NCBI GenBank assembly: GCA_025201705.1
Contig: MU616588.1
Location: 1 to 64,000, forward strand
Length of the DNA stretch: 64,000 nucleotides
From: Dissophora ornata
Lineage: Eukaryota > Mortierellomycota > Mortierellomycetes > Mortierellales > Mortierellaceae
Direction: 5' to 3'
A program made the translations under genes and the position numbers. The notes under the pieces were generated by a model. The model made no database searches. It saw only the letters and a program-made list of their open reading frames with translations, and was not told the DNA's origin. Positions 3,991 through 44,466 of the stretch are shown one piece after another (the stretch's first letter is position 1; each line of letters starts with the position of its first letter).

Positions 3991-4620
3991 CTTGTCAAAA
4001 CTCATATCGAATGAACTACTGTCTGCTTATCCAGACGCGTTAATGTAATACTAATAATACTACTATTTGAACTGGTGTATCATTTGAGAGAGTTTATCTC
4101 CGTGGTGACGAAGCCTTTTGGACTGCCTTTGGCAATGCCCTCCGGTTCAACCACAGCAGTCTCGAAGCTATTGGAGCCTTCGTCGATTTTCTCAAGGCCT
4201 TCTCCCACAACGCCTGGGTTGAGAACGAGAAGATTGTTGTGTTAATCGCCGAGTTTGATTTGATGCATGAGGCAAGCGACAACATTCGCAACTAGTGTTT
4301 GAGTGCATTCCGAACAATCCGACAGAACAACGCTCGATATGCCATTGGCAGCATCATTGTGTGAGGGACTTTCAGCATTCAGCATTTGACCACGACAGAT
4401 CCGCATGCACCTCCTTTCAATACCAATGCAACTGTTAAAAACCCGTACTTTACTCGGGAGCAGACGCAACAGCTCTTCAATGAATATGCAAATGATGAGA
4501 AGATAGCAATGCTGATGGAATTGTTCGAGACATATTCTCCAAGTCAAATGGTTATGTTCAAAACATGGTTGGTGCGTTATTGCTTTATACGTGCACCGCT
4601 CTACTGGTTCTGAATAATGA
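3926..4620 (+). pseudogene. Damaged P-loop NTPase (Crinkler/AAA-like), plus-strand copy
   Basis: The conceptual product keeps SKLISNELLSAYPDALM, then (after an intron-like GTAATACTAATAATAC) LRGDEAFWTAFGNALRFNH, a Walker B-like IVVLIAEFDLM and, after stop codons, a PYFTREQTQQLFNEYANDE block. These blocks fit the STAND/Crinkler-associated ATPases common in Mucoromycota and Mortierellomycota. The P-loop is missing, and the Walker B motif reads LIAEFD where the neighbouring copy has LIDEFD, so a catalytic Asp is lost. Stops fall after the Walker B region. It lies tail to tail with the minus-strand copy. Family assignment is from motif memory, so moderate confidence. Confidence 0.55.
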
Positions 4621-5013
4621 ATCCTCTGGTTTGCTTTCTGTAGTCATCCCCTCGAACAATTTCATCAGCAATTGTTATCTTCTCATCATTTGCATACTCA
4701 TTGAAGAGCTGTTGCGTCTGCTCCCAGTGTCGTTGCTTGCTTCGTACATCAAATCAAACTCATCGATCAACACAACGATCTTCTCGTTCTTAACCCAGGC
4801 GTTGTGGGAGAAGGCTTTGAGAAAATCGACGAGGGTTTCAATAGCTTCGAGATTGCTGTGGTTGAACCGGAGGGCATTGCCAAAGGTAGTCCAAAAGGCA
4901 GCTTCGTCACCACGGAGATTGACTTCCTCAAATGGTACACCAGTTCATATAGTAGCATTATTAGTATTACATTAACGCGTCTGGATAAGCAGACAGTAGT
5001 TCATTCGATATAA
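4003..5013. repeat. Inverted repeat formed by the two NTPase copies
   Basis: Bases 4003-4275 and 4456-4533 on the plus strand match the reverse complement of 5013-4742 and 4728-4648 with scattered substitutions. The arms are tail to tail, with a spacer of about 114 bp (4534-4647). The plus arm has extra sequence (4276-4455) that the minus arm lacks. The arrangement could extrude as a long hairpin. Confidence 0.8.
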
Positions 5014-5263
5014 GTAACTTGCAACTAGGGCGCAGGTATAGCCGTGTTGTCTTTCCAGAGGTTCGCGCGCCTACAAGCATTATGAGCTTTTGCTCTTCAA
5101 TGCCCTTCAACATTTCATTATGTTCCCCACTATCCGCAGGATCCACGTAGTAGACCGATTGTGCTTCATTGAATCTGATTCCTCCATAGACAGTCCATTT
5201 CTTCTTTTTCGGGGCTGGTGGCGCTAACGATAGTGAAGAGAGGAACGAGACAAGGCTTGTCAT
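4648..5263 (-). pseudogene. Damaged P-loop NTPase (Crinkler/AAA-like), minus-strand copy
   Basis: Starting at 5263 the frame reads MTSLVSF..., then KKKKWTVYGGIRFNEAQSVYYV and a Walker A motif GARTSGKTTR, an intron-like gap, LRGDEAAFWTTFGNALRFNH and Walker B IVVLIDEFDLMYE. Both nucleotide-binding motifs look intact. Just after Walker B (about 4738) the sequence jumps directly to the EQTQQLFNEYA region, a deletion of roughly 180 bp relative to the plus-strand copy, and the frame is lost. Upstream of 5263 there is no clear promoter. A truncated gene is more likely than a functional short protein. Confidence 0.55.
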
Positions 5264-26929: not shown

Positions 26930-29032
26930 ATGCCCAACCCGCTGCTCATCCCAGAGATCCTCTGCGCCATCTTTGATTTGCTTGACACCCATTCGCTCCT
27001 CTCAGCAGCAGCCGTGTGCAAGACCTGGAACCGCGGCGCGGTTGAGGCGCTCTGGAGCGATATTCAGCAGCTCCGGCCAGACGAAGCGTTCTGCAACCTT
27101 GCACAAAAGTACGGGCACCATGTCCGCAACCTCAATATCATCCTCGATGCTCAACCGTTCCTCCAAGTCTCTGGCAAGACACTGCTCACATGCGTACTGC
27201 AGGAGACACCCCGTCTCAAGAAACTTGCCGTCGAATTCTTGGGCGGCTGCACCAGGGTGATGCTCTCGACTGTCTTCGAGGTCATCAACGATTACGTCGC
27301 TGGGAACCTGATGTCTCTCAGCCTCTCATTGAATGTCCTCCGAGGCTCCGATAGGGCGTTCTACAGAATAGCTCCCGAGGATGCCTTGGCCTTCCTACCT
27401 GCTCTCGCACACATGACAGAACTCCACCTGGATATCTCTCCTACAGATGAGACGATCGCCGTACTGGTTTCCCTGTTGCCGAACCTTGCCGTTGTTACGT
27501 TCAATGAACCGGCTGCTTCCAGTGAAGACGCTGAGTACTTTGGTGATGACAGCCTACAGTTGATAGGTCAAAAGCTGGCGCACCTCCGTGACATCACCAT
27601 CAACTTTAACCACCACATCACCTCGACAGGACTGATCGCGTTTTCAGTCCACTGCAAGACCTTAGAACGACTCGACCTTCGCCACTGTCCACAACTTGAT
27701 GCTGCCTGCCTCGAAGCTCTGGTGGAAGCCTCGCCTCTATTGACAAATATCCACTTGGACGGCAATGCAACCAACGACGAAGTGTTGCTTAAACTTGCAT
27801 CCCCTCCAAGAGCTGCTCGCTTGAAGACCTTATGGATCGGGCACTCTCTTGATGTCACCACTACAGGCGTTCAGAGTATTGTCGGGTCCTGCTCTGGATT
27901 GTTGGAGCTGGAGTTTTCTTTCTGCCCTAATGTCTCGATGGATTTGTTCGCGGGATCGGATTGGGAATGTATCGGACTCAGGACCCTCATATATAACGGA
28001 GTTCGTCAAAGCACAGTCGGGCCAGGGAGCGTAAGGACTCGAAGAACTATACAAGAGGACCTCGCCAATATGTACAGACAACTAAGGCGACTCTCGCGAC
28101 TCGAGGAACTGGATATGAGCGCGCTCCCTTTCGAGCCGCGACTCTTTGAAATGGGTCGGTCAGCGATAGAGAGCATGAAGAGGTTGGACAGATTGGTTCT
28201 TACCGATCGAAAGGACATGATCGAGGATAAGGAATTGATATGGCTAGCAACATGTCTCCCAAGCCTGAGGACATTGCAGGTCAACTCCGACAGAGTGAAG
28301 TACGGGCTAGTGAAGGATCTGAAAGAAATCAACAGCCTTCTTGACATCGAGTTGCTAGAAAGATGGCCAGTGATGACCAGCGATATGGATGACAGCTCAG
28401 AGGACTCGGAGGGTCTGAATACTCATTCCTACATGTCCACCATCTCTGAATTCCCTGAGGACTCTGATAACTCTGACGATTCTGATGAGTCTGATGGGTC
28501 TGGCCGTTTATACTCCAGCGATTCACAGGGATCATCAACCATTCCTAACACGTCTGGTGGTTTCGAGGCCTCTGAGGCTTCGGAATCTTCTGAGGCTTCG
28601 GAGTCATCTGAGGCTTCGGAGTTATCTGAGGTTTCTGATACATCTGATGCATCTCTGGCTTCTGAGGACTCTGGAATGTCTGATATATCTGAGGCTTCTG
28701 ACCCATCTGAGGACTCCGAGTCAACTGGTGAACCTAGTTCATTAGACCAAGCTGACCTTTCTGATGAATCAGATATGTCCAACAATTCAGAGACATCAGA
28801 CACTTCTGGCGCATCTACGGTAGTTAGCGTGTCTGAGCTGTCTGATGACTTTGATGAGTCTGTCGACTCTGAGGTATCTGCCGAATCTGCCGAATCTGCC
28901 GAGTCGGATGTCATTGAGGACTCTGGAAGCTCTGACACATCGGATGACTCTGACATTTGTGAGGACTCTGAGGACGAAATCGTGTACGATGGAGAAGGGG
29001 AGGATGAATCCTCTGATAGCGATAGCGACTAA
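26930..29032 (+). CDS. F-box/LRR protein with Ser-Asp/Glu-rich tail
   Basis: Candidate substrate receptor of an SCF ubiquitin ligase. Intron-free, 700 aa from the ATG at 26930; upstream in-frame sequence looks like leader. Residues 1-45 form an F-box (IPEILCAIFDLLDTHSLLSAAAVCKTWN). Residues about 60-470 hold leucine-rich repeat-like segments (LVSLLPNLAVVTF, CKTLERLDLRHCPQLDAACLEAL, LLELEFSFCPNV). From about residue 485 to the end the protein is an acidic tail built from Ser-Asp and Ser-Glu dipeptides, a possible multisite casein-kinase-2 target. Such F-box proteins form large families in Mortierella. The tail derives from TCN-GAN hexamer expansion, so its length probably varies between strains. 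Confidence 0.85.
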   Translation: MPNPLLIPEILCAIFDLLDTHSLLSAAAVCKTWNRGAVEALWSDIQQLRPDEAFCNLAQKYGHHVRNLNIILDAQPFLQVSGKTLLTCVLQETPRLKKLAVEFLGGCTRVMLSTVFEVINDYVAGNLMSLSLSLNVLRGSDRAFYRIAPEDALAFLPALAHMTELHLDISPTDETIAVLVSLLPNLAVVTFNEPAASSEDAEYFGDDSLQLIGQKLAHLRDITINFNHHITSTGLIAFSVHCKTLERLDLRHCPQLDAACLEALVEASPLLTNIHLDGNATNDEVLLKLASPPRAARLKTLWIGHSLDVTTTGVQSIVGSCSGLLELEFSFCPNVSMDLFAGSDWECIGLRTLIYNGVRQSTVGPGSVRTRRTIQEDLANMYRQLRRLSRLEELDMSALPFEPRLFEMGRSAIESMKRLDRLVLTDRKDMIEDKELIWLATCLPSLRTLQVNSDRVKYGLVKDLKEINSLLDIELLERWPVMTSDMDDSSEDSEGLNTHSYMSTISEFPEDSDNSDDSDESDGSGRLYSSDSQGSSTIPNTSGGFEASEASESSEASESSEASELSEVSDTSDASLASEDSGMSDISEASDPSEDSESTGEPSSLDQADLSDESDMSNNSETSDTSGASTVVSVSELSDDFDESVDSEVSAESAESAESDVIEDSGSSDTSDDSDICEDSEDEIVYDGEGEDESSDSDSD

Positions 29033-29639
29033 TCTGTGAATAAATAGCACGTTGCATTTTTATGATGAGAATAAGAATATTGGCGCGATGTGTCCATTCT
29101 AGATTAAGGCACGAGCTAGACACATGTGCAAAGGAAAGGAGGTCTCACACGGACTCGATTATCGCCATCGCACAACATCGCGAGACGTAGGAAAGCGATC
29201 CCCAACAACGACAAGCATACATTGTTGGCGAACGCTTGCGCGTGTGTGTGTGGTCCATAATGTTGCAGAAGCAGGAGGAGGAGTTTTGTGCAATACGCGC
29301 CGGATATGCGAATCATGTCCTCGGGCAAGAATTAGCCCAGCACACTTGCTGTTCGCTGCGTTTCTCAAAAACTTTATCGGTTTCATTTTTTTGTTCCTGA
29401 ACAATTATGTATATGCGAGCGAGGGCTGAGAACCAACATTCCTTCCAATAGTGCGACTCCTCCTACGCGTCAACAAGCCGCTTTCTTGGCAAATACAACA
29501 TATTTGGCGATGTCAGTGGTGATCAGAGAGGAACCAAAGCTAGGATATATCCATGTTATCGTTCCTGACCCAACTTGAAGAGTATTTGAGTATTCTGTAA
29601 GACGTTTGGGTCTGTCAACGCGTGTTATCCTTTGAAAGG
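29033..29639. other. Intergenic region, nothing recognised
   Basis: About 600 bp between the F-box stop and the S41 pseudogene. No coherent coding frame or repeat seen; contains a short GTGTGTGTG run near 29240. Confidence 0.4.
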
Positions 29640-31030
29640 GTTGCCTCGCTACAGGTGCATCGCAGTCCCAATATTAAACTATCCCCATAAGGCATTCGGG
29701 CTTGAGTCCAATGACGGCGCAGCCACTATTAGAGGGATAGCGTTGAATAATGTAACAAACTGGATTTGCTGGAGTCTGGTAGAGGAAATCCGACTAAACG
29801 CGACAATCGCGACCGGTCATAGCTTTGAGGGCTGCGATGTTCTTGGGATCGCTGGTGAAGATGTGCACCCCTACATCCAGACCTGAGCCGACAAACACAC
29901 GGGTTTCTAAAGAACGCTAATGTTCAATAACGCGCTGCTCCCATAGAGTTACGACGCAGACACTAAAACATGGTACCCAACGCCTGGAGCCTTTGCTCAG
30001 CGTGGCCTTCCAGAGCCTGACTATGTTGACTATCGGTTAGATGTGATCGTCTCAAGGGGCAAGACCCAGAGCAAATGCAGCGTTGACATCTGTGGCTCAT
30101 GGGCTGTCGTTGCCTCGTCTCTGACTGGGACTTTCATGGACAAGGCTTTGTTTCTGAAGAATCTCTGTGTCGCCACCCCTAAGTCGGATTCTAAACACAC
30201 TGGCTCTGAAGTATATCTGGGGCCAAGACGACAGATTCTGGTTACTGAGAGCAAGGTGTAACGGGCACGCAGGCGTGAGCTCCACCCGCAACGCGACCTT
30301 GGTTGTACCAACCACAAATGTTGAAGCTCTATCCTTTGAGCCCATTGTACTGCAAATAATTTTCTTAGATCTCATCAACATGGCCATCAATGATCGCATG
30401 GCCCAATACACAGAGGGGTTTTAAATGGACTATAATCTGACTGCCCTGGATCAGTCGATGACCCACCCTTGGTCGGGTGATGCTTCCAAGGCCATTCTAC
30501 TGACGGACGGCCAGTGTGGCTCTGCTCGCGGTATGGCTAGTGAGCTGCTTGCGAGTAAGCATGGGGTTGAGGCGGTAGCGGTGGGTGGGCATACTCGCAA
30601 AGGTTGTTATGTTCTCATTTGCTTGTACAGGACGTCATTGTAGATGCATTCGAGACGTTCAAAATTCAGCCCAATCAGCTCAATCAGCCCAATGGCACGA
30701 CTGCCGTGATGAACATGAGGTTCAGCCCACAATGACACAGTTGCCGTAATGAACACATCCAACAATGTGAATCGAGAGGTGTACGATCGTGCGCATTATG
30801 TTGCGGCTCGCCGGCTGGACTNNNNNNNNNNNNNNNNNNNNNNNNNNNNNNNNNNNNNNNNNNNNNNNNNNNNNNNNNNNNNNNNNNNNNNNNNNNNNNN
30901 NNNNNNNNNNNNNNNNNNNNNNNNNNNNNNNNNNNNNNNNNNNNNNNNNNNTACGCCGGATACAGCTAGAAACCACGATCAGCTATGGGGCGCCATGGCG
31001 GAGACAGCATGGGCTGGAGACCAGGCTTGG
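29640..31030 (+). pseudogene. S41 family peptidase pseudogene
   Basis: Degenerate relative of the intact S41 gene at 41968-44466. In one frame it reads HSFEGCDVLGIAGEDVHPYIQT, then YDADTKTWYPTPGAF, parallel to FNADTKEWTLNPGLF in the intact protein. That frame has stops at 29884, 29908 and 29944 and ends at 30261. A second frame carries NATLVVPTTNVEALSFEP, a stop at 30422, and the catalytic-serine block AILLTDGQCGSARGM (intact: TDGACGSACGM), then TPDTARNHDQLWG near 30952. The central domain between about 30400 and 30430 is deleted. The 130-base assembly gap lies near the 3' end. With several disabling changes in sequenced parts, the gap alone cannot explain the damage. Confidence 0.8.
30822..30951. 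other. Assembly gap, 130 N
   Basis: A run of N inside the S41 pseudogene. Just upstream, 30681-30750 carries two imperfect copies of a CAGCCC-AATGRCAC...GCCGTRATGAACA unit, and a repeat there may have caused the gap. Confidence 0.99.
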
Positions 31031-31794: not shown

Positions 31795-33739
31795 ATGGCA
31801 GTGCAGCAGAGGAAAGCCCTGGCCCAGGATGTCAAGGCCGAGAAGAATGTCGATGCCCAGGTTGGCAAGACCTGGGGTCGCGATCGAGGTAATAGCCTGA
31901 CCATCTCCTAATCATCAGCACCCAGGTTCTGTACACCAGGAATATCGAAGGCAGAACGCAGACAACAGCGGCAGCAACAGCAGGACAGGATCAGTTTTGC
32001 TTGCCATTCATCATCTGTGATGGGCAAGCATCACAGGCGGCCCATCGCAGGCAGTGCACAGAACACAATAACCGTTGCGCTGGCTTTGTTGGCTTTTCTG
32101 CCCTGCATTTTTGTTTGTCCAATCATTGCAGTCGTTCGCAGCGTCACCAATGAAGCTGTACCGCCCATACTAAAGCCTTTTCGCCTTTGGCTTCCTCTTT
32201 CTGTACTTAGATGTCTCCTTCGGCACCATCTTGATCTCGCTCGGAATCCTGGTCATGTCCCCTCTTTGGGTTCTTTACACTTACATCTCTTGCAACGGCT
32301 ACTCCTGCGCCATGTCCGCCCCGGCCCTCGAGGTCTACAATGCGTCCAACCACCTCGAGGCCCTTACCACCCTCTTGATCCGCGAGTTGCCAAAGTTCTC
32401 GCCCTATGCCATCCGCATCGCCTTCACCTGGTTGATCTTCCAAGCTGCTCTCTACGCGTTCTTGCCTGCCACCATCGGATATGGTCAGCGCACCCCTGCC
32501 GGTCATCTTCTCCCGTACAAGGTATGCATCTAGAAACCAAAAGAGCCCCTTTTTTTCCAACAGCCCAGAAAGACAATCAGACAGTCGCTAACTACGCCAA
32601 CCGCACTCCCATACGTCTTCTCTATCCACTCTAGGTCAATGGGTTGTTGGCCTGGACTATTTCCCACGCTATTTACGCCGCTGGTGGTCTTTACTTTGGC
32701 TGGTGGAACTTGGCCATTATCCAGGAGAACTGGGGTGGTCTCTTGATCGCAGCCAACATCTACGGATACTTCCTGACGTTCTTCTGCTTCATCAAGGCCT
32801 ACACCTTCCCCTCCCACCCTGCTGACCGCAAGTTCTCGGGATCGTTCATCTACGATCTCCTCATGGGTATCGAGTTCAACCCCCGTTTCGGAAAGCTCTT
32901 TGACTTCAAGCTGTTCCACAACGGTCGTCCTGGAATCGTAGCATGGACGATGATTGACCTGTCCTTTGCCGCAGCTCAATACCAGCAGCTTGGCTATGTC
33001 ACCAACTCGATGATTCTCTTGAACATGCTCCACGCCACCTACGTCCTGGACTTTTTCTACAACGAGGACTGGTACCTCCGCACCATCGACATTGCTCACG
33101 ACCACTTTGGCTTCTACCTCGCTTGGGGTGATTCTGTCTGGCTGCCCTGGTTGGTGAGTGTTTGTCTGTTCGCCATGTTGTTGAGATAATGAGATCCTGA
33201 GATCCTGGTCTGGATGTTTTCGTTGCACTAACCCCGACGCACTTACTCTTTGACAATCGCAGTACACCCTTCAATCCCACTACCTCTTCCGCAACCGCGT
33301 CGACTTGACCCCTGTCCAGTTCGCATTCGTCTTTACTGTTGGCTACGTTGGATACTTCATCTTCCGCTCAGTCAACCACCAGAAGGACATTGTCCGCTCG
33401 ACCAACGGCGAGTGCATGATCTGGGGCAAGCCCGCCAAGGTTATCCGCACCTCGTTTGTGACATCGGATGGCAAGACTCACAAGTCGCTCCTTCTCTGCT
33501 CCGGCTACTGGGGCATCTCCCGTCACTTCAACTATGTCGGCGATTTGCTGATCTCCCTTGCCATGTGCATGACCTGCGGCACCAAGCACCTTTTGCCGTA
33601 CTTTTACATCATCTACATGACCATCCTGCTGCTGCACCGCATCCAGCGCGATCATACCCGCTGCAAGGGCAAGTATGGCAAGTTCTGGGAGGAGTACGAA
33701 AAGGTTGTTCCCTACAAGCTGATCCCTTACATCTATTAG
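31795..33739 (+). CDS. DHCR7: 7-dehydrocholesterol (sterol delta-7) reductase
   Basis: Integral ER enzyme reducing the C7-C8 double bond of sterols with NADPH. Exons 31795-31888, 32211-32521, 32635-33153 and 33263-33739 give 466 aa, close to human DHCR7 (475). Intron 1 is 322 bp, with a TACTAA branch-like element about 40 bp before the acceptor. Eight to nine hydrophobic segments are visible. The signature [29 protein letters not shown] and the terminal [35 protein letters not shown] and [10 protein letters not shown] blocks are those of DHCR7. The fungal Erg4 and Erg24 relatives lack the first block. A delta-7 reductase has been described from Mortierella alpina. A broken copy lies inverted at 40370-41020. 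Confidence 0.95.
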
Positions 33740-34053
33740 AATTAGAAAATAAATATGCTGTTATTATTATTTATCGTAATACGGTTTTGTGAACCTGTTT
33801 GCATGCACGCTCATGTCTTTCATTCCATCATGATCGATAATATGTCGTCTTTCCAGCTCCCGGAAGACAATAGGCTGATCGAAGCTCCCAAGCATGACGC
33901 GTTAACGTTCATCAACCCCGCTTTCGATCGCTGTCTGGAACAAGCGGGCAGATTTTTTTTTTCCTTCAAGCCCGTGCATTCCTCCTTTTCCCCTCCTGTC
34001 TTCGCTCATCGTCTCTCCATCTCATCCCCATCCGCGCAGCAACACATCAACCA
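33740..34053. other. Intergenic region conserved between duplication arms
   Basis: 314 bp between the sterol reductase stop and the next start. Most of it, including GTCGTCTTTCCAGCTCCCGG near 33845, recurs in the right arm (40079-40340), so it was copied with the genes. It ends in a CT-rich leader. Confidence 0.6.
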
Positions 34054-34842
34054 ATGTCCATTCCAAAGAACTCGTGCTTGATTCTCGGTGGAACAGGTGC
34101 TGTTGGCAAGTGCCTGGTCCGCGACGCTCTCGCCTCCAATGCCTTCACCCGCGTCTTATCACTCGGCCGCCGGCCTGTCGCCACCAACGACACCTTTACA
34201 AACGTTAACGTGCTCGAGCAAAAGACGGTGGACTTTGAAAACATCCCCGCAACATTCCCAGAGTCAGACCTACCCCAGGTCATCTTTTGCTCCCTTGGTA
34301 CCACCCGTGCTGCAGCAGGATCGGCGGCAGCCTTTAAAAAAATTGACCAGCAATACGTCCTCGACTCGGCCCGTTATATTCATGAGAAGGCGCCAAAGGA
34401 CCCAGAGACAGGACTGTCCAAGGTGCATTTCCTCTACTGCTCGTCCGCTAACTCCAACGCCAACTCGTTCTCATTGTACCCAAAGACCAAGGGCGAGACG
34501 GAGAAAGCGCTTGCTGAGATTGGGTTCGAACGGGTGAGCATCTTCCTCCCCGCATTCTTAAAGGTGGTCGAGCCACGCGAATCTGGCAGTCGCATAGCCG
34601 AGTGGTTTTTGGATAGAGTAGTGCCTCTGCTGGAGTTTGTGTCCGAAAGGTCGACGACTGTCAGTGTTGCAACCGTAGGCAAGAGCATGCGAATCGTTGG
34701 CTCCAGCGACAACGTCGAGGTCGAAGGTGTTACGCCCAAGAAGGTGGAGGTGAACCCCGTCTCCAAGACTACGGTGGCGTTCTATAGCAATGCAGACATC
34801 CACGACATTGCGCAGAACCATGAAGCGTCCTCCAAGCTATAG
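34054..34842 (+). CDS. HTATIP2/Fmp52-like NAD(P)-binding protein, left copy
   Basis: Atypical short-chain dehydrogenase/reductase of 262 aa, intron-free. The Rossmann glycine motif GGTGAVGK lies at residues 12-19, and a YPKTK sequence matches the YxxxK active-site pattern near residue 149. Other blocks (LGTTRAAAGSAAAFKKIDQQYVLDSA, FLYCSSANSNANS) match the HTATIP2/TIP30 and yeast Fmp52 family, the latter mitochondrial outer membrane. Substrate is unknown. A second intact copy, about 94% identical, lies inverted at 39290-40078. It stands 314 bp behind the sterol reductase, same strand. Confidence 0.88.
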   Translation: MSIPKNSCLILGGTGAVGKCLVRDALASNAFTRVLSLGRRPVATNDTFTNVNVLEQKTVDFENIPATFPESDLPQVIFCSLGTTRAAAGSAAAFKKIDQQYVLDSARYIHEKAPKDPETGLSKVHFLYCSSANSNANSFSLYPKTKGETEKALAEIGFERVSIFLPAFLKVVEPRESGSRIAEWFLDRVVPLLEFVSERSTTVSVATVGKSMRIVGSSDNVEVEGVTPKKVEVNPVSKTTVAFYSNADIHDIAQNHEASSKL

Positions 34843-34986
34843 ACTGAATAAACCCCATAATATTTCCAAGCTGACCGGATAAGCATTTGTATGGCGACAG
34901 TGCAGCTCGGCCGAGCTCTTCCCACAGACGGGTCCGTACCATATTTGTAGGGCAACTTTACGCAACCTACAAATCCTCCCACACCA

Positions 34987-35129
34987 TGACCCCCAGCGAC
35001 ATGAATGAACACCCTGCAGTCACCCGCTTCCGCGAGTATCTGCGCATCAAGACCGTGCAGACTATGCTGACAGTGCCACCTTCTTGATCCGCCAGGCCGA
35101 GGAGATTAGCATATGCCCTATAAAATTGT
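34987..35129 (+). pseudogene. Aminoacylase-1 5' fragment
   Basis: Begins with [25 protein letters not shown], nearly identical to exon 1 of the intact gene at 39113. It then loses 10 bp (the segment encoding PKPD in the intact copy) so the frame shifts, and it ends within the exon at the duplication breakpoint. Not functional. Confidence 0.85.
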
Positions 35130-35352
35130 ATGGTGAACAATAGCCACCCCAACGACACGCGACCCAACGGTCGAAATTTCGGTCGCGTTTTGATGTAACA
35201 CAGCCACCCCTGATATTCGTCTTCATTCTGACATTGCAGAAGCATGATGTGTCTGCCACTCTCGTTCGCTTTGCCCATAATCCGACGAATGGTGAACAGA
35301 GATACAAGCTCCAGGCCCGTGTATGTGTAGAATATCCAACGGTGTATTTTAT

Positions 35353-35421
35353 TTACTTGCTTGGGTTGATTTCGCCCAGGAACATTGTTTTGTCAGTACT
35401 ACAGGAGACAACTGTAACGTG

Positions 35422-35455
<34 letters not shown>

Positions 35456-36977
35456 AGTGGCAGGACAACGTTGGGTGATTAACAATCGCGCGCCGAAACT
35501 GTAGCTTAGTCTTACCAATTGGTTCCTTGGGATGAAAATCAACCTCATTGACACAGCCCTTGTGGCCCGGTAATTTGTACAGAATTTTGCGCGTTAAGGT
35601 ATCCCAGATAACCATCGTCCGATCCCCTGCACCAACACCGATCATGGAGCCATCTTTGGACCACGCAGGCCGGATCAGGTTCTTTTCGAACCCATGAGGA
35701 GCTCCTTCAAATGTCTTGAGGTGTCTGTTTCCAGTCGCTGAAAATGGCTTAACATCCCAGATCCTAACTGTGTTGTCCATGGCATTGGACAAGAGCTGGT
35801 TGCCATCCGGTGATAGACTGATGCCAGAAATGGTGTCCATGTGTCCAGCCAGTGAGTATGATACCGCCTTCTTGCGCATGTCCCACGCTGCGATGTTGTT
35901 ATCAATTCCACCTGCAAAAACGAGATCGCCAGCGTCTGAGAAGGAGACGGATGTGATCTGATACTGTGATTCAAAGCTTTCTACGGCAGTCTTGGCCCTG
36001 AGATCCCAAATCTAGAGATGCAACACACGTTCAGTAGCTGCGTTAGCGCTATCCATGACTCCGCATCGGCACTCACGGAGGGACCACTTAAACATACCTT
36101 GACAGTGCCGTCGTCTGATCCGCTGGCAAGCAACTCGGGTCCTCTCCTTGCAGGCGAACAGCTGTTGACAAACGATGTATGACCCTTGAACCTTTTGATC
36201 CTTTCTCCAGTCTGAACATCGAATACGCCGCATGACTTGTCTGTGCTAGCTGTAAAGATCATACTGTGATGCCGGACAGTTCCGTTATAAAGTGAACATA
36301 GGGCTAGTCAGAGGATGCCTGCCAGATCGTCTGCTATACCACGATCTTGTCATAGGCAAGCTCGATGTACCTTCCATCTCTTGACCAGTGAAGCTCCAAG
36401 ATTGCTCCTGTGTGTCCCTTAATGACGCCGTAGTTGATGCAGTCTCCGTATGTGTTCCAAAGATCTAACGTTGACGAGATGTGTGAGATTCGTTTCTTGG
36501 TCGTTCTCGAGATCAATGTGCGAGACAAATATTCCTCTGAGAGTTATGGCAAATGTCAGATAGAGTCCAAAGCAACTTACAAACGCTCTTTTCGGCTCCG
36601 GCAGATGCAATATGTTCACCGGAAGGACTGAATTTGCAGGTGTAGAGCTCTGCAGATTGACCCTGTAGCTGCATAATTGGGGCCTTCAAGGCAGATGTGC
36701 GCTTCACCTGAGATATCGAATACAAAGAAAAGAAGAAAAGTGCGTGGTATGAGATCCTGGTTCTGATAAAGAGATGGGTCCTCAAGCACTTTACTGCAGA
36801 CGAGTAGAGATCGCAGCTCCTGCGAATAAGCAAATGCCATGGTACCGTTTGAATGAGCGCGCCACTCGCACCCTTTGTCTGGATAGCCACGGCATTGGCT
36901 GATGAGGCTACATCATCAGGCTTCTGTCGTTTAACAAGCACGCCCTCTGTGGATGGTGCGTCCTTCCGTTTGTCCAT
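35353..36977 (-). CDS. SNRNP40: U5 snRNP 40 kDa WD-repeat protein (SNRNP40/Cwf17)
   Basis: WD40 spliceosome component of the U5 snRNP. Six exons: 36977-36846, 36707-36581, 36464-36371, 36263-36098, 36011-35516 and 35411-35353. It opens with a Lys/Arg-rich tail (MDKRKDAPSTEGVLVKRQKP) and APIMQLQGQSAELYTCKFSPSGEHIASAG. WD repeats follow, with IKRFKGHTSFVNSC and LLSNAMDNTVRIWDVKPF as in human SNRNP40, ending HPKEPIVVSCSTDKTMFLGEINPSK. The last exon of 59 nt is easy to miss because a T32 tract precedes its acceptor; ignoring it gives a false C-terminus at 35454. The stop lies 224 bp from the left duplication breakpoint, yet the gene is intact and single copy here. Confidence 0.93.
35422..35453 (-). 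repeat. T32 tract in the last SNRNP40 intron
   Basis: 32 A on the plus strand, which reads as T32 in the sense of the minus-strand gene. It sits 10 bp before the CACGTTACAG acceptor and would serve as an extreme polypyrimidine tract. A poly-A tail of a retroinsertion is the alternative but does not fit the splice arrangement. Confidence 0.8.
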
Positions 36978-36984
36978 GTTTCCA

Positions 36985-37061
36985 GTAGGTGGGGGTGTCG
37001 ATGAATGGGCTTGGCTGATGGATGCGATCAACACATTCCACTCATCGACACCCCCACCTAC
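36985..37061. repeat. Perfect 20-bp inverted repeat at the SNRNP40 leader
   Basis: GTAGGTGGGGGTGTCGATGA at 36985-37004 is matched exactly by its reverse complement at 37042-37061, with a 37-bp spacer. Pairing continues imperfectly inside. It begins 8 bp upstream of the SNRNP40 start codon and lies in the 188-bp gap to aminoacylase-1. Confidence 0.9.
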
Positions 37062-37165
37062 TTGCAATTTTATCGACGTCACCGATTTTTTTTTCCTTAC
37101 GCGCAAATCATCACTAGTCGATTTATATTTTTTTTTTTGTCTATGAAAAGAAGAACCTCTATGAT

Positions 37166-39113
37166 CTACTTGATAAGGGTGGCCTCGACTTGCGCGGCGG
37201 TGATATCGGAAAGTCGAGTGATCAGCGTTTCGTAAAAGTCGATGCCTTCCAAGAAAGTGTCCTCGTGCATATATTCATCGTGGTCGTGGAGAAGCAAGGG
37301 CGTGTTTTTGAGATAAGAAACACCCAGTGCAGGAATACCGACTTCACGAAGGTAGCGCGAATCCGTCGCAGCTGTGATACAAACAATAGCGTCCATACAA
37401 ATTAGAGAGAGCGAGTTTTGGCAAAAACTTGCTACTTGAACATCACTCAAACGATTATTTTTTTTTACCTGGGAAGATCTCTGTTTCGTATTCAATGTTC
37501 ATTCCCTTGCAGGCGTCGCTGAAGACTGTCCACCAAATGTTGGACTCATCAATGGCAGTGAGGGTGTTGTCAAAGTGTCCGTTCACAAACTCCATGGTCA
37601 CGCTATGGCCGGAAAGATATAACAAAGCTCAGAAACAAGGATACAATGTATGGTAGGTGACGGATGGCAAAACACAATGAGAAAAGAAGGTGCGAGTCTT
37701 ACCCAGGCTGTGAGGCGACGAAGCCCTCGAGCTTGGCCTGGAACTCCTTCATGTCGAAAAAGGGACTGACACGAATGTCGAAGCCGCAGGTGGCTTCCAT
37801 GGGAATCACATTAAATTGGATGCCACTCTACCACACAGCGCAGAATAGGAACAGTGGGGGTTAGAGATCATATAAAGAGCAAGAAAGATAGACTCATTCA
37901 CATCGCCATTATATGGTACCTGCAAGAAGGTCAGGTTGACGGTGGTTACATCTCCAAGAGTGTAACGCTTGCCGTCATGGTGCAATCCGACCTCAAGCAG
38001 CTTCTCCTGTTCGTTGCGCAGGTTCATAAACTTCTCAATGACCTTGAGCAGTTTGGTTGGTGCAGTGTCCTTGATGAACTGCGATCCATGGCCAGTAGGT
38101 CCCGTCGCGGTCACCTTGATCCACCAGGGCATACGCTCGCCGTAAAAGACCTTCAGAGCATCTTTGGGTGATGCAATACCCTCGTCAAGAGCAAAGGCAA
38201 CATTCAGACGCTTGAACTCTTCGTGGTGAACGAGTAATTTCATGCCCTCCACACCTCCGATCTCCTCGTCTGTGAATCCAGTACATAAATGTACGGGAGG
38301 TTGATTAAAGAGGGACGATGTCCATTAAGAGTAAGATTGGTAACAGAGTATGTGAGGCCTGTGAACTCGATTCCGTTTAAAGACACAATCTAAGCTAGCT
38401 CAAGTGTCATGTACATGTGGTTTCACTACTCTCGTCGGCGGACACAAAAAAAAATAGCAAAAAACTTGCCTGGGACCCAAGTGAGCTGGATGGTCCGGAG
38501 CGGCTTCTTTCCTGCTGCACGGTAGCGGCGAAGGACTTCCAAGTAGCTATGGGACAAATGCACGCAAATGACAAGCAATACAAAGGGTCGGTAAGTCATG
38601 CCAAAGTCAGATCGTACGGGCTCCGTGGTGGATACGCCGCGGGATGCGCAGGCTCTGGGGCCCCATACCTCATTCCGACACACTTCATGTCCTGAGAACC
38701 GCGGGCATAGATGCGGCCGTCGACCTTGTTGGCGGCAAAGGCATCCTGGGTCCACTTCTCAGGGAAGACAGGAACCACATCTGTGTGACTGTTGAGCAAC
38801 AGCGACGGCAAGCTCGGGTCGGTGCCTTCAAAGGTCATGATCACGGTAGGTTTGTCTGCAACGCACTGCCGAATGGAGTAAACTGCAATGAGTACAGTCG
38901 AGACGGATGGGGCTCGCTGGAAAAGATCCCTCAACTTGACTTTTGTGTGATGCATACCTCGACAATTTTATAGGGCATGCCAATCTCCTCGGCCTGGCGG
39001 ATCAGGAAGGCGGTACTGCCGGCATAGTCTGGCTTGGGCTGCACGGTCTTGATGCGCAGATACTCGCGGAAGCGGGTGACTGCAGGGTGTTCATTCATTT
39101 CGCTGGGGGTCAT
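37166..39113 (-). CDS. ACY1: Aminoacylase-1 (M20 metallopeptidase)
   Basis: Cytosolic zinc enzyme hydrolysing N-acyl-L-amino acids to free amino acids. Seven exons: 39113-38958, 38865-38669, 38546-38470, 38269-37920, 37827-37703, 37602-37469 and 37371-37166, giving 414 aa (human 408). Key residues are present: zinc ligand His79 in NSHTDVV, bridging Asp111 in ARGSQDMKC, the Glu pair in VPDEEIGG (145-146), [10 protein letters not shown], and [11 protein letters not shown] near the C-terminus. Intron 3 begins GC rather than GT (CCCAG|GCAAGT) and is needed to keep VPDEE in frame. Lies inside the inverted duplication; this is the only complete copy. Confidence 0.93.
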
Positions 39114-39289
39114 GGTGTGGGAGGATTTGTAGGTTGAGGGAATGAAGAAGAAAGAGGAAAGAAGGTTGCGTAAAGTTGCGTTACAAATATGGTACGGACC
39201 CGTCCGTGGGAGAGCTTGCTCGAGTTACACGGTCGCCATACATATGCTCATTCGATCAGCTTGGAAATATTTGGGGTTTATTATTCAGT

Positions 39290-40078
39290 CTACAGCTTGG
39301 AGGACGTTTCATGGTTCTGCGCAATGTCGTGGATGTCCGCATTGCTATAGAACACCACCGTAGTCTTGGAGACGGGGTTCACCTCCACCTTGTTGGGCGT
39401 AACACCTTCGACCTCGACGTTGTCGCTGGAGCCAACGAGTCGCATGCTCTTGGCCACGGTTGCAACGCTGACAGTCGTCGACCTTTCGGACACAAACTCC
39501 AGCAGAGGCACTGCTCTATCCATAAACCACTCGGCTATGCGACTGCCAGATTCGCGTGGCTCGACCACCTTTAAGAATGCGGGGAGGAAGATGCTCACCC
39601 GTTCGAACCCAATCTCAGCAAGCGCTTTCTCCGTCTCGCCCTTGGTCTTTAGGTACAATAAGAACGAGTTGGCGTTGGAAGCACCGGACGAACAGTACAG
39701 GAAATGCACCTTGGACAGTCCTGTCTCTGGATCCTTTGGCGCCTTCTCATGAATATAACGGGCCGAGTCGAGGACGTATTGCTGGTCAATTTTTTTAAAG
39801 GCTGCCGCCGATCCTGCTGCAGCACGGGTGGTACCAAAAGAGCAAAAGACGACCTGGGGTAGGTCTGACTCTGGGAATGTTGCGGGGATGTTTTCAAAGT
39901 CCACCGTCTTTTGCTCGAGCACGCCAACGTTTGTAAAGGTGTCGTTGGTGGCAACAGGCCGGCGGCCGAGCGATAAGACGCGGGTGAAGGCATTGGAGGC
40001 GAGAGCGTCGCGGACCAGGCACTTGCCAACAGCACCTGTTCCACCGAAAATCAAGCACGAGCTCTTTGGAATGGACAT
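39290..40078 (-). CDS. HTATIP2/Fmp52-like NAD(P)-binding protein, right copy
   Basis: 262 aa, intron-free and uninterrupted, same length as the left copy. GGTGAVGK is kept; the YxxxK motif reads YLKTK where the left copy has YPKTK. About 16 substitutions separate the two proteins, several of them conservative, and no stops have arisen, so both copies are probably under selection or the duplication is recent. It is head to head with aminoacylase-1 only in layout: both lie on the minus strand, with this gene's stop 176 bp upstream of the aminoacylase start. Confidence 0.88.
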   Translation of the reverse strand: MSIPKSSCLIFGGTGAVGKCLVRDALASNAFTRVLSLGRRPVATNDTFTNVGVLEQKTVDFENIPATFPESDLPQVVFCSFGTTRAAAGSAAAFKKIDQQYVLDSARYIHEKAPKDPETGLSKVHFLYCSSGASNANSFLLYLKTKGETEKALAEIGFERVSIFLPAFLKVVEPRESGSRIAEWFMDRAVPLLEFVSERSTTVSVATVAKSMRLVGSSDNVEVEGVTPNKVEVNPVSKTTVVFYSNADIHDIAQNHETSSKL

Positions 40079-40369
40079 TGGTTGATGTGTTGCTGCGCGG
40101 ATGGGGATGAGATGGAGAGACGATGAGCGAAGACAGGAGGGGAAAAGGAGGAATGCACGGGCTTGAAGAAAAAAAATCTGTCCGTTTGTTCCAGACAACG
40201 ATCGAAAGCGGGTGGATGAACGTTAACGCGTCATGCTTGGGAGCTTTGATCAGCTTACATGTCGTCTTTCCAGCTCCCGGAAGACAATTATCGATCATGC
40301 TGGAATGGATGACACGAGCGTGCATATGAAAACAGGTACCGATAAACAATAATAATAAAAGCATATTGA

Positions 40370-41020
40370 TGTAGCAAAAGGTGCTTGGTGCCGCAAGTCA
40401 TGCACATGGCAAGGGAGATCAGCAAATCGCCGACATAGTTGAAGTGACGGGAGATGCCCCAGTAGCCGGAGCAGAGAAGGAGCGACTTGTGGGTCTTGCC
40501 ATCCGATGTCACAAACGAGGTGCGGATAACCTTGGCGGGCTTGCCCCAGATCATGCACTCGCCGTTGGTCGAGCGGGCAATGTGGTTTCTAGATGCATAC
40601 CTTGTACGGGAGAAGATGGCCGGCAGGCAAGAACGCGTAGAGAACAGCTTGGAAGATCAACCAGGTGAAGGCGATGCGGATGGTATAGGGCGAGAACTTT
40701 GGCAACTCGCGGATCAAGAGGGCCGTAAGGGCCTCGAGGTGGTTGGACGCATTGTAGACCTCGAGGGCCGGGGCGGACATGGAGCAGGAGTAGCCGTTGC
40801 AAGAGATGTAAGTGTAAAGAACCGAAATAGGAGACAAGACCGAGACTCCGAGCGACATCAGGATGGTGTCGAAGGAGACGTCTAAGTACAGAAAGAGGAA
40901 GCCAAAGGCGAAAAGGCATTAGTACGGGCGGTACAGCTTCACTGGTGCCGCTACGAATAGCTGCAATGATTGAACAAACAAAAAATGCAGGGCTGCACAG
41001 AGAAGGAAAGCCGACGCAAC
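40370..41020 (-). pseudogene. Truncated sterol delta-7 reductase copy
   Basis: Contains the end of intron 1 and exon 2 equivalents ([42 protein letters not shown]) up to LPYK and the first bases of intron 2. At about 40580-40585 it jumps to the exon 4 segment [19 protein letters not shown], losing exon 3. The 3' end is fused at about 40368-40375 directly to sequence downstream of the stop codon, losing the conserved [12 protein letters not shown] and PYIY blocks. No exon 1 is present. It cannot encode a working reductase. Confidence 0.9.
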
Positions 41021-41136
41021 AAGTCAGATCGTGCGGGCTCCGGGGCGCCATGCCGCATTCCAACACACCTCATGTCATGAGAACCGCGGGCATAGATGCA
41101 GCCGTCGATCTTGTTAGTGGCAAAGGCATTGGAGCG
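41021..41136 (-). pseudogene. Stray aminoacylase-1 exon 2/intron 2 fragment
   Basis: Reads NAFATNKIDGCIYARGSHDMRCVGM, matching [25 protein letters not shown] of the intact gene, and continues into matching intron sequence (AGTCAGATCGT and CGGGCTCCG, with about 30 bp deleted). Same orientation as the intact gene 2.4 kb away. Adjoins the sterol reductase copy without spacer. Confidence 0.85.
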
Positions 41137-41967: not shown

Positions 41968-44466
41968 CTACTGGAACAGCTTCTTCTCGATGGACGGATC
42001 ATCACCCGTCTCACCGTCTTCCCGCCAGTGGTTATTTGCGACAATCTCCCACAGAACCTCATGGTGCCTTGCCGTAACGGGGGTATAATCGAGGTGGAAA
42101 TCGGCTGTGTAGAGTTTAGGGTTGTACTCAATAGGCACAGGGTCTCCCTCCTGGAAGAACTCTAGGATAGGCACACGAAAGATGCCCTTGTATCTTATCC
42201 GCTGCATTGGCGAATCCACGCCTAGATTCTCGAAATCATTCAGGAGAGAATCCAACCCGTAGACTGAGGCTCCAGGAAAAGAGAACATGGAGAGATCTTC
42301 TCCAACCCTTCCACCGACTGCATAGGACTGCACCCCATGGGTGTTCTTGAGGCGGTTCAAACTCATTCCACAGGCAGAACCACAGGCACCGTCCGTCATG
42401 ATGACTATCCGCTGTGCGTCATTCTGCCAGGGCATACCCATCTCCAGTGCGCCCAGGTTATGGTTCATAAAAACCTTGGGGGTGTAATTAAGCCGACGGT
42501 GTGCTCGCCGGATGAGTTGATCCTGCAGAAAAAAGTTCGTCTCAAAGTCCTTATGCGTTCCAATGTCCGAGAACGAGCTAGGGTTGAAGTAGCTTGAGTA
42601 GTCGTCGTTGGTTAAATCCACTTGCGCTATTGCCTTGGCACTCATGGACGCCCGGAGGTCGGACTGGTAGACTGAGGTTTGGTTGTCCGTCGGGAACATC
42701 CAGTCGACGAGATCGTACGCAAAAGTGACATATCCGCCGCCGTTGGAAGTCATGTCGAGGATCACATTCCTGACACCAGACTCGTAAAGCCGCTCAAACC
42801 CTTCAACCATGATCTTGCTCTCGATCTCTAGGTTGACAGAATGTGTGGGAATAACAACTACGCCAATGCTGGGTCTCTTGGCGAGTTGGTAAAAGGCGGT
42901 TGTGGTGCCATTGAAGATCATCCACGCGACTTCATCCTTCACGTACTGCCGTTTTTCAATGCTTGGCAGCGACTTTATAGTTTCATGCCGAGGGATATCG
43001 ACTGCCTCCTGAACAGATCCTTCCCATGCAGGCTTCCATGATTCCTTGACTTTGCGCCGCTCTTGTGAGACGCGTCCGGAATGCTGACGGGTGCTCTTTT
43101 TAGGGTTGGGATCCGTGTCCGAGTAACAGTTACGGTTTAAGAAGGACTCTGTGCTTTCAAAGCTATTCCAAGACACAAGTCTGTAGACTTCCCAATCGAC
43201 ATTCAAACGCTCCTCTCTTCCATGCGGGTGAGCCGCCGAAGCTGGGCATTGGATATGGTAGACCATTGTTTGTCGCTCTGGCAGGGTAGCTCTTGATGTA
43301 AACAGCCCAGGATTGAGAGTCCACTCCTTGGTGTCAGCGTTGAAGGTATTAGCGGTGAGGGCTTTGTTCAGTCGCACTCCTGCATCCTTCGATATGGCAG
43401 AATTGACGTCTATGTAGTTCTGGATGGCGTCCAAAGCGTTAATCCCGTCGATGGTGAGGACTTGACACTCCTCCAGGTCGTTAAAGCTCTTGTCCACAAG
43501 AATTCGTACAGTCTAATGATTTCATAGCACAGCGCGTGAGTTACATTTTGCATGATGATGTAAACCCCCCCTTTGTACGCCCACCAGTAATCCAGTGATG
43601 GTATTTTTGGTGCTTTACCTGGACATTGTTGGCTACGGGGGCGTAGAGCTCAAATGGTTGCACAAAGAGGTAGTGACGATAGCAGAAGGCTAGAAAAAAA
43701 AATAAAGAGGACCGGCTATCAGATATGCACTTTGCATTTGCAGGTACAGCACGGGTCTCTGGTTGGTTTCCTGCTCAACGACAAAAAACTTACCGAGGTA
43801 GTTTGCGTGTGCGTCGTTGAGTCGGCTGACTAGAATCTCCACATCCGTTTGGAACTGAAAGTCGCTATGGTATTCTTGCTGGGAGATGAGGTCAAGACCC
43901 TGAAGTATGTCGACTGGTGGATTTGTAAAAGGTTTCGGCTGGTTCTCAAGCATGGCCATGTCCAGAAAGATATAATAGTCTCGGTAGAGGGTATAAAGGG
44001 TGGAAAGGATGGTGTTCGCCTCGGTCACATTGTAGGGGACGTTCTCGTAGCATTGCTGGACATGCGTCCAGGTAACATAGGGCTCTTCCAACTGTCCGAG
44101 GATCCTGCACGGATCCTCCTCCGCCTGAGGCCTTCCTCCTCCTCCCAGCCGAGAAGGGATTTGCCGTTTGTTTTGGGATGACAAGTGCTGTACAGGCGTG
44201 TGGCGTGTAAGCGGCGCAGCGGAGGCTAGTGCTGGCGAGTGCAGGCCGTGCTCACTGCTGCCTACTATTGACAGGGCGAGAAGGACGGCTGCAGTGGCAA
44301 GAGATAATACAATCCTGGAGCCAGGCGTGAGGCGGTGCTTTGAGGACATATACCGACTGCGTCTAGGCGAATTGGCGGTAGTATTGTCGTCCTTTGCTGT
44401 GGCTGCTGGTTGATAGGAAACGACAGCAGCTGAGAGCATGCTGGGGTTGCAGTTCCTGGTTTTCAT
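41968..44466 (-). CDS. S41 family peptidase, membrane-anchored or secreted
   Basis: Serine peptidase of the C-terminal processing (CPAF-like) type. Exons 44466-43794, 43689-43619 and 43512-41968 give 762 aa. The ATG at 44466 was chosen because it precedes a hydrophobic segment (GSRIVLSLATAAVLLALSIVG) acting as signal peptide or anchor; an upstream in-frame start at 44610 adds 48 leader-like residues. A Cys-containing N-terminal domain (DPCRILGQ, HVQQCYENV) is typical of fungal members. The catalytic region has NVILDMTSNGGGYV and MTDGACGSACGM, with Ser627 the likely nucleophile. Substrate unknown; probably acts outside the cell. A dead relative is at 29640-31030. Confidence 0.88.

What the first reader, a model, noticed from the sequence alone, without database searches (positions are those of the whole stretch)
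32074..41020. Inverted segmental duplication with reciprocal gene survival
Two arms (32074-35129 and 38962-41020, opposite orientation) carry sterol reductase, HTATIP2-like gene and aminoacylase-1 sequence. In the left arm sterol reductase survives and aminoacylase is broken. In the right arm the reverse holds, and the HTATIP2-like gene survives twice. Only single-copy sequence (SNRNP40 and the body of aminoacylase) lies between the arms. Each arm has kept what the other lost, a small clear case of reciprocal loss after duplication.
Basis: seen in the sequence. Interest (0 to 1): 0.75.

Follow-up and report, generated by a model that had tools for sequence, protein, structure and literature searches.

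The report
Tandem gene duplication, later partly inverted
A roughly 3.4-kb stretch of a Mortierella-like fungal genome was most likely copied head to tail with its ends inside two genes, so that each copy was born with one complete and one cut gene, and an inversion then turned the copies to face each other; it is an ordinary, well-preserved duplication scar rather than a case of genes being lost in turn.

Summary
The arms are real, at the stated coordinates, inverted, 86-99% identical by block, with no N between them. This joint, aminoacylase intron 2 to sterol-reductase intron 1, marks a head-to-tail duplication. The broken aminoacylase thus lies in two non-overlapping, colinear pieces, one at each end of 35130-41129. 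Simplest history: a ~3.4-kb direct duplication ending inside two introns, then a 6-kb inversion with one break inside the truncated aminoacylase. The right sterol reductase never had exon 1 and the left aminoacylase never had its 3' half: truncation at birth, not reciprocal loss. Sterol reductase (466 aa) and aminoacylase (414 aa) are each complete once. Both HTATIP2/Fmp52-like frames (262 aa) are open, but 18 nonsynonymous of 29 differences do not depart from neutral (p = 0.28), so selective retention of both is unproven. A flip between the arms, natural or by assembly, could give the same end state and is not excluded. Known kind of event; interest low.

The parts
31795..33739 (+). SR1: complete sterol reductase (7-dehydrocholesterol-reductase type by hit names, ERG4/ERG24 family); exons 31795-31888, 32211-32521, 32635-33153, 33263-33739; 466 aa
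   Evidence: 88% to Dissophora globulifera, whole length
32074..35129 (+). Left arm of the inverted homology; begins inside SR intron 1, ends 4 bases before the end of aminoacylase exon 1
34054..34842 (+). HT1: HTATIP2/Fmp52-like open frame, 262 aa
34963..35129 (+). ACY1a 5' piece: aminoacylase leader and exon 1 (ATG at 34986), 10 bp shorter at one place and 2 bp longer at another than ACY1b
35129..35130 (.). Left inversion junction: ACY1a exon 1 to single-copy flank of SNRNP40
35454..36978 (-). SNRNP40 (U5-40K, WD40) gene, inside the inverted segment; limits read from stop and likely start codon, exon model not built
37166..39113 (-). ACY1b: complete aminoacylase-1; exons 39113-38958, 38865-38669, 38546-38470, 38269-37920, 37827-37703, 37602-37469, 37371-37166; 414 aa
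   Evidence: (94% to Mortierella claussenii)
38962..41020 (-). Right arm of the inverted homology
39290..40078 (-). HT2: HTATIP2/Fmp52-like open frame, 262 aa, 94% protein identity to HT1
40374..41020 (-). SR2: sterol-reductase remnant; no exon 1; exon 2 with a 30-bp deletion; equivalent of 32540-33386 deleted; 210 bp of exon 4 left; equivalent of 33597 to about 33748 deleted
41020..41021 (.). Head-to-tail duplication junction: SR intron 1 (32074 equivalent) abuts ACY1 intron 2 (about 38604 equivalent), no inserted bases
41021..41129 (-). ACY1a second piece: 3' part of exon 2 and part of intron 2 (28-bp deletion), same + orientation as 38605-38744
41129..41130 (.). Right inversion junction: ACY1a exon 2 piece to single-copy sequence
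35130..41129 (.). Segment inferred to be inverted (6.0 kb): SNRNP40, ACY1b, HT2, SR2, ACY1a second piece
   Evidence: inference from the three junctions

Best explanation
The ancestral order was SR - HT - ACY1 - SNRNP40, all on one strand (inferred). Step 1 (joint shown, event inferred): about 3.4 kb, from SR intron 1 to ACY1 intron 2, was duplicated head to tail with a blunt joint. The first copy kept a full SR, HT1 and an ACY1 cut after exon 2. The second copy had an SR without promoter or exon 1, HT2 and the full ACY1. The joint made an ACY1-exons-1-2 :: SR-exons-2-4 fusion that is out of frame if spliced across the hybrid intron (phase 2 into phase 1, from the exon lengths). Step 2 (both junctions shown, event inferred): a 6-kb inversion with one break inside the truncated ACY1a and one beyond SNRNP40 turned the second copy to face the first; 217 bp of ACY1a are missing at the break. 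Step 3 (shown): the dead pieces decayed by deletions and substitutions. HT alone stayed open in both copies, by selection, gene conversion or chance.
For: (a) ACY1 intron 2 and SR intron 1 meet base to base at 41021/41020. (b) The two ACY1a pieces do not overlap, lie in ACY1 order and cap the two ends of 35130-41129: the first ends at the equivalent of 38962, the second starts at the equivalent of 38744. The 217 bp between have no other match at E < 0.01 in the window, and a DNA search with all of ACY1 found no place in the assembly outside this locus. (c) Neither arm has native sequence on both sides (SR exon 1 only at the left, ACY1 3' half only at the right), so neither is a plain inserted copy. 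(d) SR2 exon 2 differs from SR1 at codon positions 1/2/3 in 8/4/5 sites, as for a dead copy: p = 0.48 against one third at position 3, p = 0.0007 against 70%. (e) HT1 and HT2 are sisters with 100/96 support, so the event is specific to this lineage unless conversion made them alike.
Against: No DNA of a relative could be read, so the ancestral order is not shown. In most of the species compared the genes are not on contigs of equal length (10 of 14, 4 of 5, 2 of 3); several of those contigs are short, but in Lobosporangium transversale (HT 514 kb, ACY1 538 kb) and Linnemannia elongata they are long, so linkage is not universal. The two-step order is inferred from junctions; one replicative event could make all three. 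Divergence is uneven: SR exon 4 fragment 1.4%, SR exon 2 5.8-6.0%, intron and intergenic stretches 11-19%, 0 of 95 aligned sites upstream of HT; heterogeneity over 8 segments p = 2e-17, SR exon 2 against exon 4 fragment p = 0.017. A single age does not explain this without constraint or conversion.
Confidence: 0.7

Rival explanations
1. A head-to-tail closed circle (or its replicative equivalent) carrying SR intron 1 to ACY1 intron 2 was opened inside ACY1 and inserted in reverse orientation downstream of an intact SR-HT-ACY1-SNRNP40 cluster. Homologous exchange between the now inverted copies then flipped the interval between them, spreading the complete genes over both arms.
For: If the interval between the arms is flipped on paper, the dead pieces form one contiguous block (ACY1 exon 1, HT, SR2, ACY1 exon 2 piece) that is a circular permutation of the copied unit, inserted between 35130 and 41130, and SR-HT-ACY1-SNRNP40 becomes one intact cluster (inference). 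The three longest identical runs, 127, 106 and 106 bases, lie in and just upstream of HT, as exchange or conversion could leave; 55 of 2000 shuffles of the aligned sites gave a run of 127 or more. Duplication by circular intermediates is reviewed in PMC3420103 (passages seen).
Against: Needs a rarer duplication route plus a homologous flip. HT likeness can also come from shared constraint, and the dead SR exon 4 fragment is more alike by percentage (1.4%) than HT coding (3.7%). Same end state, so not separable with this one sequence.
Confidence: 0.15
2. Inverted segmental duplication followed by reciprocal loss of functional copies.
For: The arms are inverted repeats, with one complete SR on the left and one complete ACY1 on the right.
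Against: Leaves the ACY1 exon 2 piece abutting SR2 unexplained; no trace found of SR exon 1 beyond the right arm or of ACY1 3' exons beyond the left arm; neither arm has both native flanks.
Confidence: 0.08
3. Assembly error: the interval between the arms is turned round by a mis-join within the arms, or the arms are merged haplotypes.
For: Identical runs of 106-127 bases exist in the arms, so a short-k assembly could cross over; no reads were available.
Against: No N in the locus. The remnants differ from the complete genes by deletions, frameshifts and 1.4-19% substitution by block, which an assembler would not invent. The ACY1/SR joint is outside the long shared runs. Haplotypes would not lie inverted on one contig. 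A mis-join would turn the interval but not remove the duplication.
Confidence: 0.06

Closest known systems
Tandem duplications with ends inside genes, giving partial copies and chimeric genes (Rogers, Shao & Thornton 2017, PMC5460883; abstract and outline seen)
   Same: A head-to-tail joint fuses the 5' part of one gene to the 3' part of another, and each copy carries one cut gene (the detail of cut genes is general knowledge; the abstract speaks of chimeric structures)
   Different: Here the fusion is out of frame, the copies were later inverted, and the remnants are decayed; a fungus, with no expression data
Saccharomyces flip/flop region on chromosome XIV (PMC9731477; abstract and outline seen)
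   Same: Inverted repeats holding a frequently duplicating, fast-evolving gene around an interval that could flip by homologous exchange
   Different: There the repeats are 4 kb and almost identical and both orientations are known; here the repeats are diverged and no second orientation has been seen
Duplication through circular intermediates (cattle, tilapia vasa; reviewed in PMC3420103, passages seen)
   Same: A copy made by way of a circle; a circularly permuted block with a head-to-tail joint would fit
   Different: Only one of two readings here; insertion would be beside the source, inverted

Membership tests
Tandem (head-to-tail) segmental duplication | A joint linking the 3' end of the copied unit to its 5' end | tested here: met
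   41021/41020 joins ACY1 intron 2 to SR intron 1 with no bases between
Tandem (head-to-tail) segmental duplication | Copies in direct orientation when formed | tested here: inconclusive
   HT1/HT2 and SR1/SR2 are now inverted; the ACY1a second piece and SR2 are in direct order at the joint; direct copies follow only after undoing the inferred inversion
Inverted segmental duplication | One copy retains both native flanks | tested here: not met
   SR exon 1 flanks only the left arm and the ACY1 3' half only the right arm; the right arm's outer flank is an ACY1 piece
Reciprocal loss after duplication | Both genes were complete in both copies before loss | tested here: inconclusive
   No remnant of a second SR exon 1 or second ACY1 3' half found in window or assembly; clean deletion cannot be fully excluded
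Retained functional duplicate pair (HT1/HT2) | Purifying selection on both copies since duplication | tested here: inconclusive
   dN 0.031, dS 0.060, Fisher p = 0.12; 18 of 29 differences nonsynonymous against 0.69 expected, p = 0.28; 0 gap events in HT against 11 per 86 substitutions in the rest of the arms tested, p = 0.049
Chimeric gene from tandem duplication | In-frame fusion | tested here: not met
   ACY1 exons 1+2 end in phase 2, SR intron 1 is phase 1 (exon lengths); transcripts not testable

The most novel reading that the evidence does not exclude
The inverted copies act as a flip switch: exchange between HT1 and HT2 turns the SNRNP40-ACY1 interval back and forth, so that some strains carry one intact SR-HT-ACY1-SNRNP40 cluster plus one dead inverted copy and others the split arrangement seen here, with HT kept alike by repeated conversion.
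Probability: 0.12. Interest if true: 0.45.

Novelty: new member of a known kind. Interest (0 to 1): 0.22.

Why it matters
It shows how a pattern that looks like reciprocal gene loss can be fixed at birth by where duplication ends fall, and how a later inversion can disguise a head-to-tail duplication as an inverted one. Scans that count 'reciprocal loss' or 'inverted duplicates' should look for such joints first. Otherwise it is a local curiosity of one fungal genome.

Tried and rejected
Extending the arms outward to the S41-peptidase-like genes on either side (about 29.3-31 kb and 41.97-43.5 kb): matches of 27-49% protein identity over stretches of 55-140 residues and no blastn match at E 1e-3, so taken as old paralogues, not part of this duplication.

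Finding the missing 217 bp of ACY1a (38745-38961 equivalent) elsewhere: no other match at E < 0.01 in the window (best other 0.035); a DNA search with all of ACY1 found no place in the assembly outside this locus.

tRNA genes at the breakpoints: none in the window by ARAGORN (bacterial-code setting).

Polarising the 16 amino-acid differences of HT1/HT2 with 40 homologous proteins (of P0002-P0043, P0024 and P0039 were dropped for length): at near-invariant sites HT1 deviates at 77 and 209, HT2 at 81, both at 134. Counted from the rows, with Gamsiella as outgroup 5 changes fall on HT1 and 6 on HT2, with D. globulifera 2 and 8; no clear faster copy, although the tree gives HT2 the longer branch (0.052 against 0.018).

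Papers: eight term searches. Three found no paper (the last for 'Mortierella', 'tandem duplication' and 'inversion' together); five gave listings, from which three papers were opened. The 6 papers holding 'Mortierella' and 'segmental duplication' are, by title, not on this locus (listing only).

First splice attempt had wrong sites and broken frames; corrected.
Full report
OBSERVATION. Block by block the aligned differences are: SR intron 1 and flank 12.6% (18/143), SR exon 2 5.8% (16/278), SR exon 4 fragment 1.4% (3/210), SR-HT intergenic 19.2% (37/193, inflated by a 30-bp local inversion), immediate HT upstream 0/95 (one length difference in a T run), HT coding 3.7% (29/789), HT-ACY1 intergenic 11.3% (16/142), ACY1 exon 1 4.9% (7/142). 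The only N run is 30822-30951, outside the arms.

GENES. SR1 (31795-33739, four exons, 466 aa) is a complete enzyme of the 7-dehydrocholesterol-reductase type by its hits. ACY1b (39113-37166 on the minus strand, seven exons, one intron with a GC donor, 414 aa) is a complete aminoacylase-1. The middle gene is U5-40K/SNRNP40 by one exon; its exon model was not built. HT1 and HT2 are 262-aa frames of the HTATIP2/TIP30/Fmp52 kind; Pfam itself gave only a sub-cut-off match for HT1 and none for HT2. Other ERG4/ERG24 matches lie on contig C145 and, below the cut-off, on C131; no further HT or ACY1 place was found in the assembly (protein search; DNA search).

41021-41129, directly outside the right arm, is a piece of ACY1 exon 2 and intron 2 in the same + orientation as the real gene: 88% over 97 bp plus a further 21-bp match beyond a 28-bp deletion. 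Its last base and the first base of the sterol-reductase homology are neighbours (ACY1 intron 2 | SR intron 1). That is the joint a head-to-tail duplication leaves. The left ACY1 remnant stops 4 bases before the end of exon 1. The two remnants do not overlap and are in order; the 217 bp between them have no match at E < 0.01 elsewhere in the window and none was found outside the locus.

HOW IT AROSE. Undo an inversion of 35130-41129 and the locus reads SR1 - HT1 - ACY1 (exons 1 and 2, cut in intron 2) | SR (cut in intron 1) - HT2 - ACY1b - SNRNP40. This is a plain tandem duplication of about 3.4 kb with its ends in two introns. Two events explain three junctions. The cut genes were cut at birth: the second SR never had promoter or exon 1, the first ACY1 never had exons 3-7. 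The fusion at the joint would be out of frame (ACY1 exons 1+2 = 353 nt, phase 2; SR exon 1 = 94 nt, phase 1; lengths). SR2 exon 2 differs from SR1 without third-position bias (8/4/5 at positions 1/2/3; tests), as expected of a copy that was not under selection. Later deletions removed most of SR2. Shown: the joints, pieces and decay. Inferred: the order of events and the ancestral gene order. The linkage hint from relatives is partial. Among Mortierellaceae species named in both lists, contig lengths are equal for HT and ACY1 in 4 of 14 (Gamsiella, M. claussenii, Actinomortierella ambigua, Podila epigama), for HT and SR in 1 of 5 (Benniella), for SR and ACY1 in 1 of 3 (Lobosporangium). In Gamsiella the protein numbers of HT and ACY1 are close (460504, 460510). 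Equal length is taken to mean the same contig, which is an inference; only the best 120 hits were listed for ACY1 (of 3214) and SR (of 882), and species outside the family were not counted.

THE HT PAIR. HT1 and HT2 are sisters (support 100/96) in a tree of 39 rows: 37 of the 73 hits other than HT1 itself, picked by hand, plus HT1 and HT2. The duplication is specific to this lineage unless conversion has made them alike. dN 0.031, dS 0.060, ratio 0.52, synonymous against nonsynonymous p = 0.12; 18 of 29 differences are nonsynonymous where 69% is expected without selection (p = 0.28). HT coding divergence (3.7%) is not clearly lower than that of the dead exons (4.2%; p = 0.59). Random substitution of 29 sites leaves the frame open in 2,670 of 5,000 trials, of 15 sites in 3,613 of 5,000. 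For retention speak the lack of any gap in 789 bp (0, against 11 gap events per 86 substitutions in the other arm segments, the micro-inverted stretch and the 95 bp upstream of HT left out; p = 0.049) and the match of 95 of 95 aligned sites upstream (chance about 1e-6 at the noncoding rate, 0.03 at the HT coding rate). So both frames are open, and whether both are kept by selection is undecided. The 0/95 upstream and the 1.4% SR exon 4 fragment, set against 11-19% in nearby noncoding sequence, suggest conversion or constraint and remain unexplained; the longest identical run (127 aligned sites) was reached in 55 of 2,000 shuffles.

RIVALS. A circle-like permuted copy inserted inverted, then flipped by exchange between the arms, gives the same end state and cannot be told apart here. 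Assembly turning of the interval between the arms is possible in principle because of identical runs up to 127 bp, but would not make the diverged remnants. A simple inverted duplication with reciprocal loss leaves the ACY1/SR joint unexplained.

COMPARISON AND VERDICT. Gene-cutting tandem duplications are well known (PMC5460883, abstract and outline seen), and inverted repeats that flip an interval are known in yeast (PMC9731477, abstract and outline seen). This is a clear small example of the first, possibly with potential for the second.

Noticed in passing
33842-33871 and 40259-40288: A 30-bp stretch is exactly reverse-complemented between the two arms: a micro-inversion around a short hairpin, of a kind discussed with template switching (papers seen in a listing only).
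   Followed up: partly
36979-37067: Near-palindrome (41-nt arms, 7-nt loop, 80%) between the 3' end of ACY1b and the start of SNRNP40.
   Followed up: no
4000-5015: Another inverted repeat (4000-4284 / 4728-5015, 90.6%, plus 4452-4529 / 4651-4728).
   Followed up: no
29336-31000 and 41968-43512: Two distant S41-peptidase-like paralogues (27-49% identity over short stretches) face each other on either side of the locus.
   Followed up: partly
35422-35453 and 1-28: Long A runs (32 and 28); the first lies directly behind the SNRNP40 stop codon.
   Followed up: no
   Followed up: partly
one search hit names: Many Mortierellaceae aminoacylase-1 orthologues are named 'adenylate cyclase' in public records, probably a misread ACY1 symbol.
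   Followed up: no
28447-28972: Low-complexity stretch built on a 9-bp unit (15 overlapping copies in a 58-nt register); Ser/Glu-rich if translated, by eye.
   Followed up: no
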